DNA of 64,000 bases from Brevibacillus agri. GTDB lineage: Bacteria; Bacillota; Bacilli; Brevibacillales; Brevibacillaceae. The DNA lies in assembly GCF_004117055.1 (NCBI RefSeq), contig NZ_CP026363.1, positions 62,001 through 126,000 of the forward strand, in the 5' to 3' direction. This document shows positions 20,541 to 63,113 of the stretch, one piece after another. Position numbers and translations under genes: made by a program. The notes beneath the pieces were generated by a model. It had not been told where the DNA came from, did not search any database, and saw only the letters and a program-made list of their open reading frames with translations. Within the stretch, counting starts at the first letter, position 1, and every line of letters starts with the position of its first letter.

Positions 20541-21050
20541 CAATTTATGTCGCAATGGAAAGTAGGAGCAGATGTGACTTTATACGGATTTTACACAGAT
20601 GAATCAGGAAACAACGGCTTCAATGATATGAGAAATCAACCCGTTCTCTGCTACGCGGGCATCCTGGTCCCCATCCATTACCAGGTGCATTTGCATCATG
20701 AGGTCCAGAAAATCAAAGACAATCTGGAAAAAGATATAAAGGCCACCATTCACGGCATACCCGCTGAGCAGTTTCCACATATCGACTTTTTTAAAAAGTT
20801 TGAAATCCACGGAAAGGCGTTTATTGACGGTGAAAATTTCTACTATAACTTATCGGATCGCCAACGCTTCAAAGTGGTGGAAGAGTTGTTGTCTTTAGTG
20901 AAGGCTTCAGAAGTAAAGGTAGTGGCTGCTCTAGTCAACAAACAGCTTTACCAGACCCAGACACGTGAAACCAACCATAACCGTATGCATATCGTAAGCG
21001 TCAAATAGCCCCCACCTTGTTGCCAAGATGAGGGCTGGTCTATGCTGGGG

Positions 21051-22628
21051 TCAAGAGTTGAACACGTTGCAAGTTAGCGGTAACCACGGCGACCAAGGCA
21101 GCAAACTATCCAGGGTTTCTGGATTTTTCAGATCGGGAAGCTGTGGGAGTTGTTCGAATAGGTACGTCAAGTACTTGAACGGGTTCAGTCCATTCTCCTT
21201 TGCTGTTTCGATGACACTGTAGATGATTGCGCTCGCCTTTGCACCGCGAGGCGTATTGGCGAACAGCCAATTCTTTCGTCCGATCACAAACGGCTTCATC
21301 GACCGCTCGCTGCGGTTGTTGTCAATCTCGAGCCGCCCATCCTGCAAAAACGCCGTCAGCTTGTCCCACTGATTCAGGCTGTAGGCAATCGCCTGCCCCA
21401 GCAGACTTTTGGGAAGCGTTCGGGGGCGTTGCTGACGCAACCATGCCAAATAAGCGTCCAAAATGGGCTTGCTTCGCTCCATTCGGACGGTATAGCGTTC
21501 CTCTGGTGTCACGTCCTTCAGTTCCCGTTCAATGGCAAAGAGCTGGTTGCAGAACTGAAGCCCTTGCTGAGCTGCTGTTTCGTTTTTGTCTTGGGAGGCG
21601 GGCAGCGCCTTCAACGCCTCGTCAAACTTGCGACGCGCATGTGCCCAGCATCCAACGAGGGTGACATCCTTCACCTTGTGGTAACCGGCATAGCCGTCCA
21701 CGTGAAGATAGCCGCCAAACCCCGTCAGAAAGTTCCGGGGATGCTCACCGCCGCGCGTTGTCCGGTAATCGTAGAGCACGATGGGCGGACCCATGCGGCC
21801 TGTCCGGTACAACCACAAATAGGACTGCGTCTCTGCGGATCGGCCAGGCTCGCGCAATACCTGCAGCGTCGTTTCGTCGGCGTGCAGAATATCCTGGTTC
21901 AGCAGATGCTCCCGCATGCGGTCTGTCAGCAGGGAGAGCCACTGCTCTGCCCCGTAGATCATCCAATTCGCCAGCGTCTGCCGCGAGATCGTCAGACCCA
22001 TGCGGGCAAACTGTTGCTCCTGTCTGTACAACGGTTGGCTGTCCACGTACTTCTGCGTCATGACATACGCCATACTCGAAGGAGAAGAGAGGCTTCCGGG
22101 GTAGACAGGCTCTGGCATCGGAGCCGTGACGATGGGTGTGCGAATTTCCTCTCGTTCACAGCGGCGGCAAGCATACACCTGGCGAACATGACGCACGACT
22201 TTCACTTCTGCCGGGATGACCGTGATTTCGTTACGGGTCTCGGTACTCATCTCGTGGAGAGGACCTCCGCAGCATGCGCAAACTTGCTCCGTTTTCGGCA
22301 GTTCATAGAGGACCGTTTCCACGGGGAACTGGTCCAGCTTGGATTTGCGGCCAGCAGACTTTTTACGGCTGTACGTAACCGTTTCTACATCCGGTTCCTG
22401 AGCGGCAGGAGTCGCCAGCATCTCGGCTTCGTTGAACAGGTTCAGCTCCAGTTGATCCGGATGCGTCTTCTCGCTGGAGGCACCGAAACGTTTTTGCTGG
22501 GCCAGTCGGAACTGCTCCTCGTACCATTTGAGTTTGGCCATGAGCTCGGCGTTTTGCTGCTCCAGTTCGAGGCAACGGTCCTGCAGATGTTCCATTGTAA
22601 TGTGGGGCGTTTCACTTGTTTTTTTCAT
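21051..22628 (-). CDS. tnpC: IS66-family transposase TnpC
   Basis: About 525 residues: an N-terminal leucine-zipper helix (LQDRCLELEQQNAELMAKL), a zinc-finger with CACCGG and CRRCE, and the IS66 DDE core. Catalytic residues fall in LHADETTLQV, YLHVDGYAGY and IDNNRSERSMKPF. The ATG at 22628 is chosen; a TTG six codons upstream (22646) is possible. No frameshift is visible, so it looks intact. Confidence 0.92.
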   Translation of the reverse strand: MKKTSETPHITMEHLQDRCLELEQQNAELMAKLKWYEEQFRLAQQKRFGASSEKTHPDQLELNLFNEAEMLATPAAQEPDVETVTYSRKKSAGRKSKLDQFPVETVLYELPKTEQVCACCGGPLHEMSTETRNEITVIPAEVKVVRHVRQVYACRRCEREEIRTPIVTAPMPEPVYPGSLSSPSSMAYVMTQKYVDSQPLYRQEQQFARMGLTISRQTLANWMIYGAEQWLSLLTDRMREHLLNQDILHADETTLQVLREPGRSAETQSYLWLYRTGRMGPPIVLYDYRTTRGGEHPRNFLTGFGGYLHVDGYAGYHKVKDVTLVGCWAHARRKFDEALKALPASQDKNETAAQQGLQFCNQLFAIERELKDVTPEERYTVRMERSKPILDAYLAWLRQQRPRTLPKSLLGQAIAYSLNQWDKLTAFLQDGRLEIDNNRSERSMKPFVIGRKNWLFANTPRGAKASAIIYSVIETAKENGLNPFKYLTYLFEQLPQLPDLKNPETLDSLLPWSPWLPLTCNVFNS

Positions 22629-22686
22629 ACTTGTTTGATTCGACAACTGAGCAGGAATATCCTGTGCCCTTGTTTGGAAAATAGGC

Positions 22687-23043
22687 TCAAATGACTGTGC
22701 GGGCCGTCACCTCCGGATGTTCTTGGTGTTGTTCAAGTGACAACCCATCGAGCAGCCAGCGCAGCTCACGTCGGGTCATTTTCATCGGCGCAGCGCTCGC
22801 ATCTGTCGGCCAGCGGAACTTGCCACGCTCCAACCGACGGTAGTAGAGCCAGAATCCGTTATGCTCCCAATAAAGGATTTTCAGTTTGTCTCGCTGTCTG
22901 TTGCAAAAGACAAACAGCGCAGATGAAAACGGATCGAGATGAAATCCCTCCTTGACCAGGACAGCGAGTCCGTCAATGGACTTGCGCATATCCGTGCTGC
23001 CGCAAGCGAGGTACACCCGATCTGCCTGAATCTCGCTTAACAT
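22687..23043 (-). CDS. tnpB: IS66-family accessory protein TnpB
   Basis: 118 residues with the IS66 Orf2 signature (VYLACGSTDMRKSIDGLAVLV at the start and ALFVFCNRQRDKLKILYWE in the middle). Required for IS66 transposition with an unclear role. The start overlaps the tnpA stop by 7 bases, indicating coupled translation. Unrelated to the RNA-guided nuclease also called TnpB. Confidence 0.92.
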   Translation of the reverse strand: MLSEIQADRVYLACGSTDMRKSIDGLAVLVKEGFHLDPFSSALFVFCNRQRDKLKILYWEHNGFWLYYRRLERGKFRWPTDASAAPMKMTRRELRWLLDGLSLEQHQEHPEVTARTVI

Positions 23044-23360
23044 AAGGTTTTCAACACCTTGACCACATCCGCAAGCAGGGATGGATCAAAGCCGGATCTG
23101 ATCTCAATGCTTGCCGAACCAACTTTCACAAGCAAGGGCGATGCTGTGTCGGATGTCGATTCTTTCACTTGAAGGGGAACCCACTGCGGTTTGTTGGTTG
23201 CTTGTTTTGGCTCATCTTCCCCTTTCAATTTCCGCATCCAATACCAAAGCTGGCGCGGCGTAACCTGATGACGTTCGCACCAGGTCGCGACGCGCTCTCC
23301 ACTAGCCCGGTAGTCATTGATTCGGGTGCTCCATACCTCTCGAAGCTCCGCTTGCGTCAT
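23037..23360 (-). CDS. tnpA: IS66-family accessory protein TnpA
   Basis: 107-residue helix-turn-helix protein. VWSTRINDYRASGERVATWCERHQVTPRQLWYW (in part) matches the IS66 Orf1 family. The ATG at 23360 follows GTGGGAGG. First gene of the tnpABC operon. Confidence 0.88.
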   Translation of the reverse strand: MTQAELREVWSTRINDYRASGERVATWCERHQVTPRQLWYWMRKLKGEDEPKQATNKPQWVPLQVKESTSDTASPLLVKVGSASIEIRSGFDPSLLADVVKVLKTLC

Positions 23361-23439
23361 AAAAAAACCTCCCACTATAAAGTAATGTTTTCTCCTGTTT
23401 TCTCGCTCATTCTCTGTTTTTTAACTTTGACATCTTAAA

Positions 23440-25190
23440 GCTCTTGTCGGAAGATTGAAGGAGATACAAATATTTCTGTAAGGGCTGTGGCGGGAATAGA
23501 GCCTGCAATCACCAGTTTCCAGACTGTGGATAAAAAGGTATGATCGCACAGTGGATCTCCACATCCGCCCTCGGGGTTTACCCTCCCATGTCACGCTGGG
23601 TCTATGCCCTTACATTCCTTCGTTCTACCTCTCAAGGGGTGGAGGCCGATTCTAGCTCCTCGACTGGGTCGTTGCCCTTATGGATTATAATTCTTCGGCT
23701 TCTCCGGTGCTTCCGTTGTCATGGTTGTACACATGTGAATAAGCGAGATGACAGGTTTGTTGATAAGCTTTATGCAGCACTTTGTTGTAGCTGGGCTTGT
23801 CGAATCGGCCCCAATACTTCGTTTGCGTTATACTCTTTCTGCTTTGTCCCCAGTGCATAGAGGACGCGAACCAGTTTTCCACATAAGGCGATAATCGATT
23901 GCTTCTTCTTGAGCGGATTTTGACTACGCGTTGTATAATACTCGTGGAGCGCTTTAAACTCTTTGTTTTTGGCTACCATCGGCAGCATGCAGCGGAACAA
24001 GATGCCTCTTAGGCGAGAGCGCCCCCGCTTGCTGATTCCGGTCTTTCCCTTACGTTTTCCAGAGCTGTTCTCCGTCAGATTCAGCCCAGCCAGACGGATG
24101 ATCTGCTGTCCATGGTCGTAGTTGTTCAGATCGCCAACCTCCGCCAAGAAGCCGGCGACGGTCAGAATGCCAATCCCTGGGATGCTCAGCATTTGCTTCG
24201 TTCCGGGGATCTTCTCCAGAATCTGCAGGACTTCCGTCATAATGCTTTCTTCTTGCTTGCAGTACAGATCGTACTGCTGCAGCAAGGCGGCAAGCTCGAT
24301 TCGGGCAGCTGTCAGCCCCTCGGTAAGCCCGATAGAGACCGTAGCGGCAGCATAGAGCTGCTCCGCTCTCTTGATGCCCACCCCACGCTTGATTTCCGTC
24401 TTCCAATGTGTGAGAACGCCTCTGGCGCCTATCGAGACAATCTCCTCTGGAGTGGGAAACTGGCGCATGGTCATCAGTGATGCCTTGCCTTCCCAGTCCT
24501 TAAACACTTGTGGATACTCCGGAAAGTAGCGGTCAAACCAGTTTGTAATCCGAGCTTTCACTTGATTCAAGCTCACCATGACCTTCTCCCGAAAATTCAT
24601 CAGAATGCGTAGCTCTGCATATTCCTTGGTCGGCAAATTGGGCTCTGAATATTTCCCGCTCCGAATCAGGTCGGCAATGACCTTCGCATCCTTGTAGTCG
24701 CTCTTGGTCTGCGAGTTGTCCTCAAGTTCTTTGCTCTTGTTCACATGGTGCGGATTCACGACGACGCCCCTGATGTCTTGCTCCTTCAAAAATGCCGCTA
24801 ACGGGAACCAGTAGTGTCCGGTAGGCTCGATGCCAAATACGATGTCGGTTTTCTCATGTATCCGGCCAAGCTCCTTCATCCACGCAGCCAGTTTCGTTAG
24901 CCCCTCCTGATCGTTGTGGAACACACATTCTTTCCCAAGCTCAATGCCTCGGAAATCCACGGCTCGAGCTACATGAATCTTTTTGGCGATGTCCGCACCA
25001 ACAACCAGTGTTTTTTCGGTAATTCGTGTAATCCGTTGATTCTGTTTCTGTTTCAGCTTATACTTCATGTAGAGCGTCCTCCTTTTCATTAGGGCAGTGT
25101 GAATGTGACCATTCCAAGACCCAGCATACAGGAGGCGCTTTTTTCTTTCAAAGCTCAAATTTCTTCATTACAGGAATGGCTCCTCGTATC
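23440..25190 (-). mobile_element. IS110-family element nested in the IS66 element (approximate ends)
   Basis: An IS110-type transposase gene with about 330 bases of non-coding DNA downstream (23440-23769) and about 120 upstream. IS110 elements lack inverted repeats and target duplications, so the ends cannot be fixed from one sequence; the stated limits are estimates within about 50 bases. It lies between tnpA and the right end of the IS66 element, so it arrived after the IS66 copy. Confidence 0.7.
23770..25068 (-). CDS. IS110-family DEDD transposase
   Basis: 432 residues. The N-terminal RuvC-like DEDD domain shows VVGADIAKKIHVAR, FGIEPTGHYWFPLA and TKSDYKDAKVIADLI. The C-terminal Transposase_20 domain holds LSIPGIGILTVAGFLAEVGD and the conserved serine region SGKRKGKTGISKRGRSRLR. 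The ATG at 25068 follows AAAGGAGGACGC. The frame is intact. IS110 recombinases use a bridge RNA encoded in their non-coding end; the 330 bases downstream of the gene are a candidate location. Confidence 0.9.
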   Translation of the reverse strand: MKYKLKQKQNQRITRITEKTLVVGADIAKKIHVARAVDFRGIELGKECVFHNDQEGLTKLAAWMKELGRIHEKTDIVFGIEPTGHYWFPLAAFLKEQDIRGVVVNPHHVNKSKELEDNSQTKSDYKDAKVIADLIRSGKYSEPNLPTKEYAELRILMNFREKVMVSLNQVKARITNWFDRYFPEYPQVFKDWEGKASLMTMRQFPTPEEIVSIGARGVLTHWKTEIKRGVGIKRAEQLYAAATVSIGLTEGLTAARIELAALLQQYDLYCKQEESIMTEVLQILEKIPGTKQMLSIPGIGILTVAGFLAEVGDLNNYDHGQQIIRLAGLNLTENSSGKRKGKTGISKRGRSRLRGILFRCMLPMVAKNKEFKALHEYYTTRSQNPLKKKQSIIALCGKLVRVLYALGTKQKEYNANEVLGPIRQAQLQQSAA

Positions 25191-25600
25191 GTTCTGAGGA
25201 AGATTATCTCACGGGACATTTCTGATTCGTAGGTGTGCTGGATTTGACGCTTACGCATATCCATGCGTATACGGAACTTGTTCGCTGCCTTTCCAACGAG
25301 CTGAGCCGTGCTGACTCGTATGCGTTTGTCATTTGTGACGACGGCAAGCCGAGCGAGCTCAACCATTTTCGTGACGCGCTGCGAAATCCGGTCAATCGCA
25401 GGGTGTATCCCGACCTTCAGGTAAAGCTGTCGCACGATCATAATGGAAACCTGATCCAACTGGCTGATATGATTAACTTCATCACCTCTGTTCATTTCCG
25501 GCATCGTTACGGCTTCCCTCCGCGAAAACGACACCAGGCCGCCATCCTCGATGTGTATGCGCGACATCTGGACTCCAAGCTCATCATCTGGGAATACAAA

Positions 25601-25640
25601 TAAAAAAGAGGAGGACGCACACAACGTGCGAACTCCTCTT
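25601..25640 (-). terminator. Terminator of the candidate RNA
   Basis: AAGAGGAG and CTCCTCTT enclose the CGCAC/GTGCG hairpin of the third repeat, followed by U6 on the minus strand. It abuts the stop codon of the DUF3800 gene. Confidence 0.75.
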
Positions 25641-25807
25641 GTCGGTCGTACACAACGTGCGACCTATTCCTACCCTATCCAAAATCACCGGACGATATGT
25701 CAGAATAAATTAAGACATTCTGTTCATAGGTCAATGCATGAGCTACGTACAGAATGCCTTAATTTTCATGTAGATTTAGTCGTACACAACGCGCGAGCAA
25801 ATCCACA
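25602..25807 (-). ncRNA. Candidate small structured RNA converging on the DUF3800 gene
   Basis: A minus-strand unit of about 205 bases with a consensus promoter at 25814-25842 and an intrinsic terminator ending at 25602. It contains three short hairpins with the same loop region, CGCACGTTGTGTACG or variants (plus-strand 25781-25796, 25647-25662 and 25616-25631). It also has a 17-bp stem (25749-25765 with 25707-25723) whose single non-Watson-Crick pair is a G-U on the minus strand but an A-C clash on the plus strand. No credible reading frame is present. Structured RNAs linked to DUF3800 genes have been described computationally. Membership in one of those classes is an inference. Confidence 0.6.
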
Positions 25808-25813
25808 TCTATA

Positions 25814-25842
25814 ATTGTACGTTTGCGAAAGGAAGTTGTCAA
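25814..25842 (-). promoter_or_regulatory. Sigma-A promoter of the candidate RNA
   Basis: Minus strand: TTGACA (25842-25837), 17-base spacer, TACAAT (25819-25814). Nothing protein-coding follows. Confidence 0.8.
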
Positions 25843-25855
25843 GCATAACGGAGAA

Positions 25856-25892
25856 AAAAAGGCTTCGCCCATCTTTTTAGCGAAGCCTTCGC
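25856..25892 (-). terminator. Terminator of the gene at 25915
   Basis: AGGCTTCGC pairs with GCGAAGCCT, followed by seven U on the minus strand. Confidence 0.85.
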
Positions 25893-25914
25893 TTCACTTG
25901 TGTCGATCCTTACG

Positions 25915-26871
25915 CTACTTCACCCGCTTCATCGCCACCGCTTCCCCATACGTGCCGATGACCGGCTGATACAGGTTGCGGTTGTTCAACTGGTCCTGGC
26001 TCACTACCGGGGTCGGACGATTCATTTTCCATGTAATCTGGCTGTACACATTGCCTGTGGCGGTCGGCATCGTGACCAAAATATCTTTGACCTGGTCGTT
26101 GTTGCTGTCAGTCACGTGCAGCTTCGGCAGCAAACCTTTGTCGCGCGTGCCCACCGAAATGAACGTCTGTTGGTTGTCTTTCCCTTCGCGAACCACAACG
26201 CGCAAATTCTCGGCCGTCTGGTTCATCGACATGCCCATCTTGTCGCCTACCAAAAAGATGTGGTCTTTGATACCGTCGCCTGTCACATCTGCGTATTTCG
26301 TATCCAGCACAAATGTACTGTCGCTTTTCATGCTGAACCCGCTATTGATCGAAACATCCGGCGAAGGCAAGTTGTCGACATCGGTTTTTTCCACTGTTAC
26401 CCCGAGCAACTGCGGCTTTTGGTCCACGATATTCCACACGCTGGTTGCCACGGCAATATGGTCCTGATTGTTTACTCCCCAAATATTTTGCTTGCCCATC
26501 CAGCGCAGATTGCCTTTGGCGTCGCGAAATGGCACCAGCTCCACGAGCTTTTGCACGTAGCCGTCCGTCGGCTTTTGCAGCTTGCCGTTGGCCTGATAAA
26601 TCCCTTGATTCAGGTACGTTGTTTTATTGGCAGATAAATCAAACGTGCTGACTGCTTTTGTGCGCAAATTCGTTACTTTCGCTTGAAACCCGTCGGTAAA
26701 CTGAACGGAAAACGGAATGTTGTGCTGCGGTTGCAGCAGGACAACTGGAGCATACGTTTGTGACTGTGACGGAAGGGCATTCGCATGAACCGGAGCGGCC
26801 CCCAGTCCTGCTGTCATGAGAATAGCGCCGCTACATACGATTGTTGCCATCGTTCTTTGCCAAAGTTTCAT
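25915..26871 (-). CDS. Secreted protein with FG-GAP-like calcium loops
   Basis: 318 residues with a classical signal peptide (cleavage probably after residue 30, VHANA). Two acidic loops, DVTGDGIKDHIFLVG near 195 and DSNNDQVKDILVTMP near 260, look like the calcium-binding loops of FG-GAP/integrin-type repeats. It is exported and probably extracellular. The ATG at 26871 follows TAGGAGGAG. The neighbouring divergent gene at 27095 encodes a lipoprotein with the same loop type. Function unknown. Confidence 0.75.
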   Translation of the reverse strand: MKLWQRTMATIVCSGAILMTAGLGAAPVHANALPSQSQTYAPVVLLQPQHNIPFSVQFTDGFQAKVTNLRTKAVSTFDLSANKTTYLNQGIYQANGKLQKPTDGYVQKLVELVPFRDAKGNLRWMGKQNIWGVNNQDHIAVATSVWNIVDQKPQLLGVTVEKTDVDNLPSPDVSINSGFSMKSDSTFVLDTKYADVTGDGIKDHIFLVGDKMGMSMNQTAENLRVVVREGKDNQQTFISVGTRDKGLLPKLHVTDSNNDQVKDILVTMPTATGNVYSQITWKMNRPTPVVSQDQLNNRNLYQPVIGTYGEAVAMKRVK

Positions 26872-62920: not shown

Positions 62921-62953
62921 AAAAAAGGCCTCCTCAAACAGGCGGTCTTTTGA
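62921..62953 (-). terminator. Terminator of the c-di-AMP riboswitch
   Basis: Minus strand: CCGCCT pairs with AGGAGG (one mismatch) followed by CC and U6, directly downstream of the aptamer. Confidence 0.65.
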
Positions 62954-62966
62954 CCTCCCTCGCTTT

Positions 62967-63090
62967 AGCCGACGAAGTTAGCTGACGGGTAGGATGGCGA
63001 AAGAGTCTCTCATCCCTTCCACGAAACCGTGGAATTAACCCCAGAAGATTGGGTCCTCCGTTCCCGAGTGCCTCGGGATTAGGCCGGATT
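62967..63090 (-). promoter_or_regulatory. c-di-AMP (ydaO-yuaA) riboswitch aptamer
   Basis: The minus strand carries the conserved blocks of the ydaO class in order: GGCCTAATCCCGAG, ACGGAGGACCCAATC, TGGGGTTAATTCC, a GGGATGAGAGACTC-type hairpin, and CCCGTCAGCTAACTTCGTC. CCGGC and GTCGG close the P1 stem. It lies between the kdp promoter and the kdp genes. In Bacillota, c-di-AMP binding to this class turns off K+ uptake genes, so high c-di-AMP should terminate kdp transcription. Confidence 0.92.
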
Positions 63091-63113
63091 TGCAATTGTT
63101 GGTTACGAGTCTC

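What the first reader, a model, noticed from the sequence alone, without database searches (positions are those of the whole stretch)
25602..25842. Compact candidate small RNA converging on a DUF3800 gene
The minus strand has a near-consensus promoter (TTGACA-17-TACAAT), about 205 bases without a reading frame, and an intrinsic terminator that abuts the DUF3800 stop codon. Inside are three hairpins sharing the loop region ACGTTGTGT, and a 17-bp stem whose one odd pair is G-U only on the minus strand. Repeated identical loops suggest a multivalent binder of a protein or RNA. Computationally defined RNA motifs associated with DUF3800 genes are known, but their function is not. This locus could be such an RNA-protein pair, with the protein partner now disrupted by transposons.
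Basis: partly seen in the sequence, partly recalled or inferred. Interest (0 to 1): 0.78.

Follow-up and report, generated by a model that had tools for sequence, protein, structure and literature searches.

The report
DUF3800 partner RNA with repeated hairpins
Beside a transposon-broken bacterial nuclease-like gene lies the probable gene for a small RNA that shows the same hairpin several times; relatives keep the RNA and the gene together, and a few phage sequences carry copies of the hairpin, which hints at a host-phage contest fought with RNA.

Summary
The RNA is very probably real. The minus strand of 25602-25842 has a near-consensus promoter and ~205 nt that fold into four main hairpins (H1-H4). 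The window's DUF3800 gene is split by IS66 and IS110 elements. I found eight other genomes with an intact DUF3800 of this subfamily; 8 of 8 have the same RNA, converging on the gene and abutting its stop codon, with a TTGAC[A/T]-17-NANNAT promoter. Compensatory changes support the structure (13 of 56 pairs in six sequences; shuffles average 3.3, 0 of 500 reach 13). A covariance model from one clade finds 5 of 5 full RNAs of a clade whose proteins are 34-35% identical (E 4e-23 to 6e-13). No Rfam family matches, the DUF3800 models included. The core UCGCAC-GUUGU-GUACGA recurs while outer stems drift, as expected of a repeated protein-binding hairpin. DUF3800 is predicted to fold like RNase H2/H3. 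Unexpectedly, phage contigs without such a DUF3800 carry the hairpin: one shares 32 nt with a Bacillus copy, 34 nt before a skipping-rope RNA (RF02924); in two near-identical others the core sits in an arm of that RNA. Best reading: an RNA-nuclease module, perhaps antitoxin-like, that some phages mimic. Function and transcription are untested.

The parts
25814..25842 (-). promoter TTGACA-17-TACAAT
   Evidence: a promoter of the same spacing at the same place in the 8 genomes with intact DUF3800 (the pattern prescribed 17, that allowed 16-18)
25602..25807 (-). predicted DUF3800-partner small RNA (start estimated ~7 nt after the -10)
25768..25808 (-). hairpin H1 with apical core CGCGCGUUGUGUACG (CGCACGUUGUGUACG in relatives)
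25708..25764 (-). hairpin H2, 16-bp stem with a degenerate core at its tip (intact core in Bacillus sp. FJAT-47783)
   Evidence: 8 of its 24 pairs have a double change
25644..25664 (-). hairpin H3 with core UCGCACGUUGUGUACGA
   Evidence: invariant in clade 1, so no covariation evidence
25606..25640 (-). hairpin H4, core CGCACGUUGUGUGCG in the probable terminator stem
   Evidence: 4 of 13 pairs have a double change
20547..21008 (+). 5' part of the broken DUF3800 gene
   Evidence: PF12686 E 4.5e-5; matches query residues 1-159
25235..25603 (+). 3' part of the broken DUF3800 gene
   Evidence: matches query residues 147-262; no Pfam match on its own
21051..23375 (-). IS66-family element genes between the two DUF3800 parts
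   Evidence: PF03050 and PF05717 in two ORFs; the third ORF had no Pfam match
23770..25158 (-). IS110-family transposase between the two DUF3800 parts
   Evidence: PF01548, PF02371

Best explanation
The locus is one half-broken copy of a two-part module: a DUF3800 protein with an RNase H-like fold and a separately promoted, structured small RNA on the opposite strand. Shown here: the RNA is conserved in structure, shares several copies of one hairpin core, and accompanies each of the 8 intact DUF3800 genes of this subfamily that were found. Inferred: each hairpin core binds a DUF3800 molecule, and the RNA holds the nuclease in check, working like a type III RNA antitoxin without belonging to that family. 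Also inferred: phages that carry the same hairpin, alone or in a skipping-rope RNA, use it as a decoy for DUF3800 or are sensed through it.
For: Linkage: 8 of 8 genomes with an intact DUF3800 of the subfamily have the full RNA next to it (five G handles were equated with named records by equal contig lengths, and not counted twice). In the genus, full RNA and near-full or split DUF3800 occur in the same 3 of 26 genomes. Structure: 24 of 59 pairs with a compensatory change in 7 sequences; 13 of 56 in 6 sequences, 0 of 500 shuffles. Homology between clades: model R1, trained on clade 1 only, finds 5 of 5 full clade-2 RNAs given to it, E 3.7e-23 to 6.1e-13, and nothing significant in 27 other DUF3800 loci (best E 0.35) (E-values rough). 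Core constant, outer stems drifting. Nuclease fold: RNase H2 chain Z 9.6, 3.2 A over 164 residues, RNase HII Z 9.5; D18, E19, D175, D218 invariant in 6 of 6. Order of loss: where DUF3800 is broken the RNA persists (window, G525, G474; truncated in G497), never the reverse among the 8. Phage hairpins.
Against: No toxicity, binding or expression data. The order of loss is weak evidence: the gene is about 3.6 times longer than the RNA, so four gene-first breaks have a chance near 0.38 (my arithmetic). A T-rich terminator tail is seen in clade 1 only, and is weak in P. agaridevorans; clade 2 has none. The genetic layout differs from type III toxin-antitoxins. A fragment of DUF3800 in G005 has no RNA beside it. 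The structure counted was derived from the same alignment. An activating role of the RNA fits most of the same facts.
Confidence: 0.45

Rival explanations
1. The RNA is an activating cofactor or scaffold: DUF3800 needs it to act as a ribonuclease (defence effector), and phage hairpins are decoys or triggers.
For: Same linkage and fold evidence; DUF3800 proteins are reported in some CRISPR loci (passages).
Against: The RNA persists after DUF3800 is broken, which a pure cofactor has less reason to do; by eye no guide-like variable segment stands out in the alignments.
Confidence: 0.3
2. The hairpin core is a site for some other RNA-binding protein of host and phage, and DUF3800 is only a neighbour.
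For: The core occurs in phage contigs, and no DUF3800 of this subfamily was found in the viral collection.
Against: 8 of 8 intact DUF3800 genes have the RNA at the same place, in several different genomic settings.
Confidence: 0.12
3. The repeats are DNA sites (operators or cruciforms), not RNA.
For: The plus strand folds about as well and its consensus also covaries.
Against: Minus-strand promoter conserved in the 8 genomes; non-Watson-Crick cells lean to the minus strand in clade 1 (G-U to A-C 23 to 2 with the minus-strand consensus, 16 to 9 with the plus-strand one), but only modestly, and each consensus favours its own strand.
Confidence: 0.07
4. The RNA is a base-pairing regulator of DUF3800 mRNA or other mRNAs.
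For: Identical exposed loops.
Against: Pairing with the DUF3800 start region did not beat the best of 60 shuffles in any of 6 loci, though in B. gelatini (L066) it came close (-69.1 against a best of -71.0). Other mRNAs were not tested.
Confidence: 0.06

Closest known systems
Rfam DUF3800 RNA motifs (DUF3800-I RF02969, DUF3800-VIII RF03075 and others)
   Same: Small structured RNAs next to DUF3800 genes; type 'Gene; sRNA' in Rfam.
   Different: No Rfam match; several copies of one hairpin core; convergent and abutting the stop in all 8. In the 27 other loci scanned, DUF3800-I lay downstream on the same strand (4 loci) and DUF3800-VIII in three different arrangements (3 loci).
Type III toxin-antitoxin systems (ToxIN, CptIN, TenpIN)
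   Same: Small module of a nuclease-fold protein and a repetitive RNA.
   Different: RNase H-like DUF3800 instead of a ToxN-type toxin; RNA convergent with its own promoter, not upstream in one operon; separate hairpins, not tandem repeats (definition from passages of PMC5086642).
Skipping-rope RNA (RF02924)
   Same: In phage contigs L019 and L020 its third hairpin arm carries the same 15-nt core.
   Different: The window RNA does not match RF02924; 13 other loci found with a skipping-rope pattern lack the core in that arm.
CreTA / CrePA / CreR CRISPR-linked regulators
   Same: In three clade-2 loci a degenerate type I-C-like repeat with a guide-like stretch that matches its own promoter lies just upstream of DUF3800.
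   Different: Seen in P. pini, SZ31 and the closely related G505; decayed in G506 and G474; not seen in the clade-1 upstream stretches read or the window; toxicity untested.

Membership tests
Rfam DUF3800 motif families | covariance-model match at the family's gathering score | tested here: not met
   Searches (window, up to E 10 over 25400-26000; six relatives, up to E 1): no DUF3800 family listed
Rfam DUF3800 motif families | location next to a DUF3800 gene | tested here: met
Type III toxin-antitoxin | RNA precedes the toxin in one operon, separated by a terminator | tested here: not met
   RNA is convergent, with its own promoter; definition
Type III toxin-antitoxin | toxin of the ToxN/CptN/TenpN endoribonuclease families | tested here: not met
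   the only Pfam match is DUF3800; predicted RNase H-like fold
Type III toxin-antitoxin | antitoxin RNA made of tandem repeats | tested here: inconclusive
   3-5 copies of a hairpin core, not head-to-tail repeats
Type III toxin-antitoxin | RNA neutralises the protein's toxicity | not testable with these tools
   needs an expression experiment
RNase H2/H3-like fold (DUF3800 protein) | same fold in structure comparison | tested here: met
   predicted model, pLDDT 77.6; RNase H2 Z 9.6, 3.2 A over 164 residues; Foldseek's best E was only 4.6e-3
RNase H2/H3-like fold (DUF3800 protein) | nuclease activity | not testable with these tools
   four acidic residues invariant in 6 of 6; their equivalence to RNase HII catalytic residues is recalled, not aligned here
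Skipping-rope RNA RF02924 | covariance-model match of the window RNA | tested here: not met
CrePA/CreTA (clade 2 only) | crRNA-like guide partly matching a promoter of the toxin gene | tested here: inconclusive
   guide-like stretch matches the promoter of its own element, upstream of DUF3800, with TTC before the match; whether that promoter drives DUF3800 is unknown

The most novel reading that the evidence does not exclude
DUF3800 plus its multi-hairpin RNA is an anti-phage RNA-nuclease module, and some phages answer with RNA mimicry: they carry the host hairpin either alone beside a skipping-rope RNA or grafted onto an arm of it. Skipping-rope RNA, whose function is not known to me, would then be in part a phage scaffold for displaying decoy hairpins.
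Probability: 0.28. Interest if true: 0.92.

Novelty: new variant of a known kind. Interest (0 to 1): 0.74.

Why it matters
Rfam holds several RNA families beside DUF3800 genes; I know of no function for them and found none in the passages seen. This class has a readable logic: one hairpin core displayed several times beside a predicted RNase H-like nuclease, and copied in phage sequence next to or inside another orphan RNA (skipping-rope). That links two RNA families of unknown function by shared sequence and makes both testable: does DUF3800 bind the hairpin, is it toxic, and does the host RNA or the phage hairpin change that?

Tried and rejected
Rfam at loose thresholds gave only chance-like matches far below gathering: for the window RNA microRNA and snoRNA models and one Xanthomonas sRNA, for six relatives two sRNA or leader models and three microRNA models. 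BLAST of the RNA region (plasmids) and tblastn of the clade-1 protein (plasmids, named phages) found nothing; clade-2 queries found one Paenibacillus megaplasmid record, whose length and coordinates equal those of G474. No DUF3800 of this subfamily was confirmed in viral contigs. Scans of viral contigs for longer exact hairpins gave 0, 1 and 0 hits; the one, L171, lies in GC-rich DNA and looks coding. A 37-nt query in named phages gave one poor match, E 6; two phage stretches gave none there. Two weak model hits in Brevibacillus G019/G020 (30 and 27 bits) look by eye like an unrelated leader RNA. Model hits L163, L164, L165 (G599, G432, G285) look like unrelated terminator hairpins. The Paenibacillaceae model search scored only 6 candidates per genome and missed the known RNA of G293, so its misses mean little. 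A crude search for repeated apical 7-mers round 30 DUF3800 loci was too noisy on its own; a stricter repeat test reported, downstream of DUF3800, only this family's three loci, L090 and, at threshold, L089.

Energy of folding does not choose the strand. The gene-first order of loss was considered as proof of an antitoxin and rejected as such (length bias). Model scores on phage loci (L023 E 4.6e-9, L036 8.4e-7, L041 6e-4, L020 0.02) are biased, as those loci had been chosen by the core itself; I do not count them as evidence.

In the first alignment of a relative I took a wrong stretch of L003; one search replaced it. In A5 the third and fourth hairpins of clade 2 are misaligned, so its covariation count for those is too low. 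The tblastn for cobW returned nothing; the empty sites were read by eye. In one search the fold of L159 failed because the contig ends there.

Full report
WHAT IS THERE. The window lies in a 5.37-Mb single-contig genome. Two genomes of its genus share the RNA locus, G013 and G017 (RNA 97% and 87% identical); by equal contig lengths they are Brevibacillus gelatini and B. parabrevis. On the minus strand a promoter (TTGACA-17-TACAAT) is followed by ~205 nt that fold at -82.7 kcal/mol (z -7.1) into H1 (25808-25768), H2 (25764-25708), H3 (25664-25644) and H4 (25640-25606), plus a weaker hairpin between H2 and H3. H4 is followed by T6 and touches the DUF3800 stop codon (25601-25603). The DUF3800 gene is in two parts, 20547-21008 and 25235-25603, with IS66 and IS110 genes between.

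CONSERVATION. In the genus, 3 of 26 genomes have the RNA; the model search gives the same 3 at full length plus two weak hits in G019 and G020 that look unrelated. The same 3 have DUF3800 of this kind, split in the window and intact in the other two; a fourth genome, G005, has an 82-codon piece with three stops and no RNA. A collection scan with the protein alignment returned six loci: B. parabrevis, B. gelatini, Paenibacillus agaridevorans (75% identity), Bacillus sp. FJAT-47783 (63%), P. pini and Paenibacillus sp. SZ31 (34-35%). Six of six have the RNA directly after the stop codon, converging. A search of 394 Paenibacillaceae genomes added G505 (very close to SZ31) and G506, both with the RNA. 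That makes 8 genomes with intact DUF3800 and 8 of 8 with the RNA and with a TTGAC[A/T]-17-NANNAT promoter. In 398 genomes of the class, the clade-1 protein found no further relative than these groups (5 genomes with a match), while DUF3800 at large (PF12686) occurs in 46 of 398.

STRUCTURE BY EVOLUTION. On seven RNAs RNAalifold predicts 59 pairs, 24 with at least one compensatory change. On six clade-1 RNAs 97.9% of cells pair, 13 of 56 pairs have a double change (shuffle mean 3.3; 0 of 500 reach it) and sliding the partner by 1-3 columns leaves 1-4. The structure came from the same alignment, which favours it; H3 never varies there and gives no covariation evidence. The model R1 built from clade 1 alone finds the five full clade-2 RNAs along its whole length, E 3.7e-23 to 6.1e-13 (rough E-values), and the G497 remnant at 1e-6, but nothing significant in 27 other DUF3800 loci of the class (best E 0.35). 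These are loci L071-L100 less the three that belong to this family.

THE REPEATED CORE. The core UCGCAC-GUUGU-GUACGA (clade 1) or UCGCAC-AUUG-GUUCGA (clade 2) recurs with small changes in H1, H3 and, fully paired, H4; in Bacillus FJAT-47783 there are five copies, with H1 doubled and an intact core at the tip of H2. In the window, B. gelatini and B. parabrevis the tip of H2 is degenerate. Copies outside H4 mostly keep a C-A, C-U or U-C mismatch two pairs below the loop (by eye). Outer stems differ between copies and species. A fixed core on a drifting stem is what a repeated protein-binding hairpin shows (inference).

STRAND. Non-Watson-Crick cells favour the minus strand in clade 1: G-U 23 against A-C 2 with the minus-strand consensus, and 16 against 9 with the plus-strand consensus; each consensus favours its own strand, so the excess is modest. 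The promoter is the better argument.

THE PROTEIN. Six intact proteins share 72 invariant columns, among them D18, E19, D175 and D218. The AlphaFold2 model (pLDDT 77.6, pTM 0.80) resembles RNase H2/H3: Foldseek's best match is RNase HIII at E 4.6e-3; VIA-align gives human RNase H2 Z 9.6 (3.2 A, 164 residues) and RNase HII (1eke) Z 9.5, above Prp8 and Piwi-type rows (up to about 6) and RNase HI rows (about 4 to 5.4). That DUF3800 has an RNase H fold is already in print: passages of PMC10910872 and PMC12669027 say so and report it in some Cas12a2 (V-A2) and VI-F loci.

THE MODULE. In at least 12 of the 20 Brevibacillus loci without the module, the same neighbour gene is followed directly by cobW; in the three with it, DUF3800 and the RNA sit between (read by eye). 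In P. agaridevorans and Bacillus the module has other neighbours. In clade 2 it sits before cas3 of a type I-C-like operon in P. pini and G506, and before a gene with the same start in SZ31; a CRISPR array lies on the other side in P. pini, SZ31 and G505. Cas names were read from sequence, not from a family search, and the cas side of G505 and G474 was not read. In Brevibacillus, then, two parts and no third gene were gained or lost together.

ORDER OF LOSS. Four genomes have a broken DUF3800 with RNA still beside it: window, G525 (full RNA, promoter intact), G474 (four hairpins, TAGACT at the -35 place, a gap in the linker), G497 (H3 and H4 only). Three more have only remnants of the last hairpins and no recognisable DUF3800: G698, G574, and G707 at a contig end. 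No intact DUF3800 of the 8 lacks the RNA. This fits an antitoxin, but the gene is a target 3.6 times longer.

CLADE-2 CRISPR LINK. Just upstream of DUF3800 in SZ31, G505 and P. pini lies one degenerate I-C-like repeat. The spacer-like stretch after it matches the promoter of this same element, preceded by TTC: 10 of 10 seed positions, and 15 of 15 (SZ31, G505) or 14 of 15 (P. pini) of the first 18 positions once each sixth is ignored. In SZ31 and G505 the mismatches fall at positions 6, 12 and 18; P. pini has one more at 17. Position 3 changes in spacer and target together between the species. It is the only 10-of-10 site listed in the 19-kb stretches of G505 and P. pini. That TTC is the I-C PAM and that each sixth base is flipped out is recalled. 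In G506 and G474 the element is decayed. It looks like a self-repressing guide of the CreA/CreR kind (review passages of PMC12737573). If its promoter also drives DUF3800, DUF3800 would be a CRISPR-repressed effector, which would agree with it being harmful; that is a guess.

PHAGE COPIES. An exact scan of viral contigs with CGCACGTTGTGTRCG gave 45 loci. Four (L019, L020, L023, L036) have it in AT-rich DNA without an open frame of more than 57 codons, inside an extended hairpin; a fifth, L041, has the longest outer stem and a T-rich tail, but a 141-codon open frame runs through it. The other 40 lie in open frames of 80 codons or more, and all but L011 have at most four outer pairs: chance, as far as can be seen. 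L036 shares 32 nt and L023 29 nt with hairpin H1a of Bacillus FJAT-47783. L023 has a second, similar hairpin after it. L036 has terminase and head genes, L023 tape-measure genes, L020 a terminase gene. Rfam finds a skipping-rope RNA (RF02924) in the four, not in L041, and in 0 of 12 of the other 40 (28 not scanned). In L036 the hairpin ends 34 nt before the skipping-rope RNA on the same strand; in L023 the two are 4 kb apart; in L019 and L020, near-identical to each other, the core is the tip of the third arm. Of 13 other loci found with a skipping-rope pattern, none has the core in that arm, and one (L179) is probably not a skipping-rope RNA, so this is no general feature of that family. The 29-32-nt identity is far beyond chance; the 15-nt core in L019/L020 could be chance, though its place in an arm tip speaks against it. 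RNA mimicry by a phage against a type III antitoxin is in print: phage PhiTE and ToxIN (title and start of the abstract of PMC3475682 in the listing).

HOW IT MOST LIKELY WORKS. DUF3800 binds the hairpin cores; the RNA, with 3-5 cores, holds several molecules; phage hairpins compete for them. Whether the RNA restrains or equips the nuclease is open; I lean to restraint because the RNA outlives the gene. Shown: a conserved structure, its linkage to DUF3800, the fold prediction, the phage copies. Inferred: transcription, binding, restraint, mimicry.

NOVELTY. No Rfam family matches. Text searches of the held library found no description: 'DUF3800' with 'RNA motif' 1 paper; 'DUF3800' 11 papers, 10 listed, passages read in four; 'skipping-rope' 15 papers, 10 listed, none of these about RNA; mimic terms 12 papers, 6 listed (listing only). 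The 2017 paper that, as I recall, named the DUF3800 and skipping-rope motifs is not held. I file the RNA as a new class within the known kind of DUF3800-linked RNAs.

Noticed in passing
L069, L070, L133 (just upstream of DUF3800): Degenerate type I-C-like CRISPR repeat whose spacer-like stretch matches its own promoter after TTC, with mismatches only at every sixth position in SZ31 and G505; resembles CreA/CreR self-repression.
   Followed up: partly
L019, L020, L023, L036: Phage contigs carrying the DUF3800-RNA hairpin core in non-coding DNA; all four also have a skipping-rope RNA.
   Followed up: partly
L041:808-866: Terminator-like hairpin in a viral contig with the same loop as H4 (UCGCACGUUGUGUGCGA) and a T-rich tail, though an open frame of 141 codons runs through it.
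   Followed up: no
L090, downstream of DUF3800: Two identical 45-nt stretches 97 nt apart downstream of another DUF3800 gene; L089 has a weaker 22-nt repeat. Perhaps other DUF3800 RNAs are repetitive too.
   Followed up: no
L181, skipping-rope RNA near 1548: The third arm of this skipping-rope RNA is much longer than in the others, suggesting that this arm tolerates insertions.
   Followed up: no
G000:C1:237333-237980 (L088): A second, intact DUF3800 gene in the window's genome, without a match to the RNA model nearby.
   Followed up: no
L068 (Bacillus sp. FJAT-47783): The module lies between an HTH/IrrE-like gene plus a DUF5986 gene and a gene that looks like rlmH (by eye), a setting that may mark an integrated element.
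   Followed up: no
window 62952-63095 (-): c-di-AMP riboswitch (RF00379, 78.5 bits).
   Followed up: no
L152, L153 (G019, G020): Leader-like RNA with promoter and strong terminator upstream of a gene starting MNKQP, similar in both genomes; unrelated to the finding.
   Followed up: no
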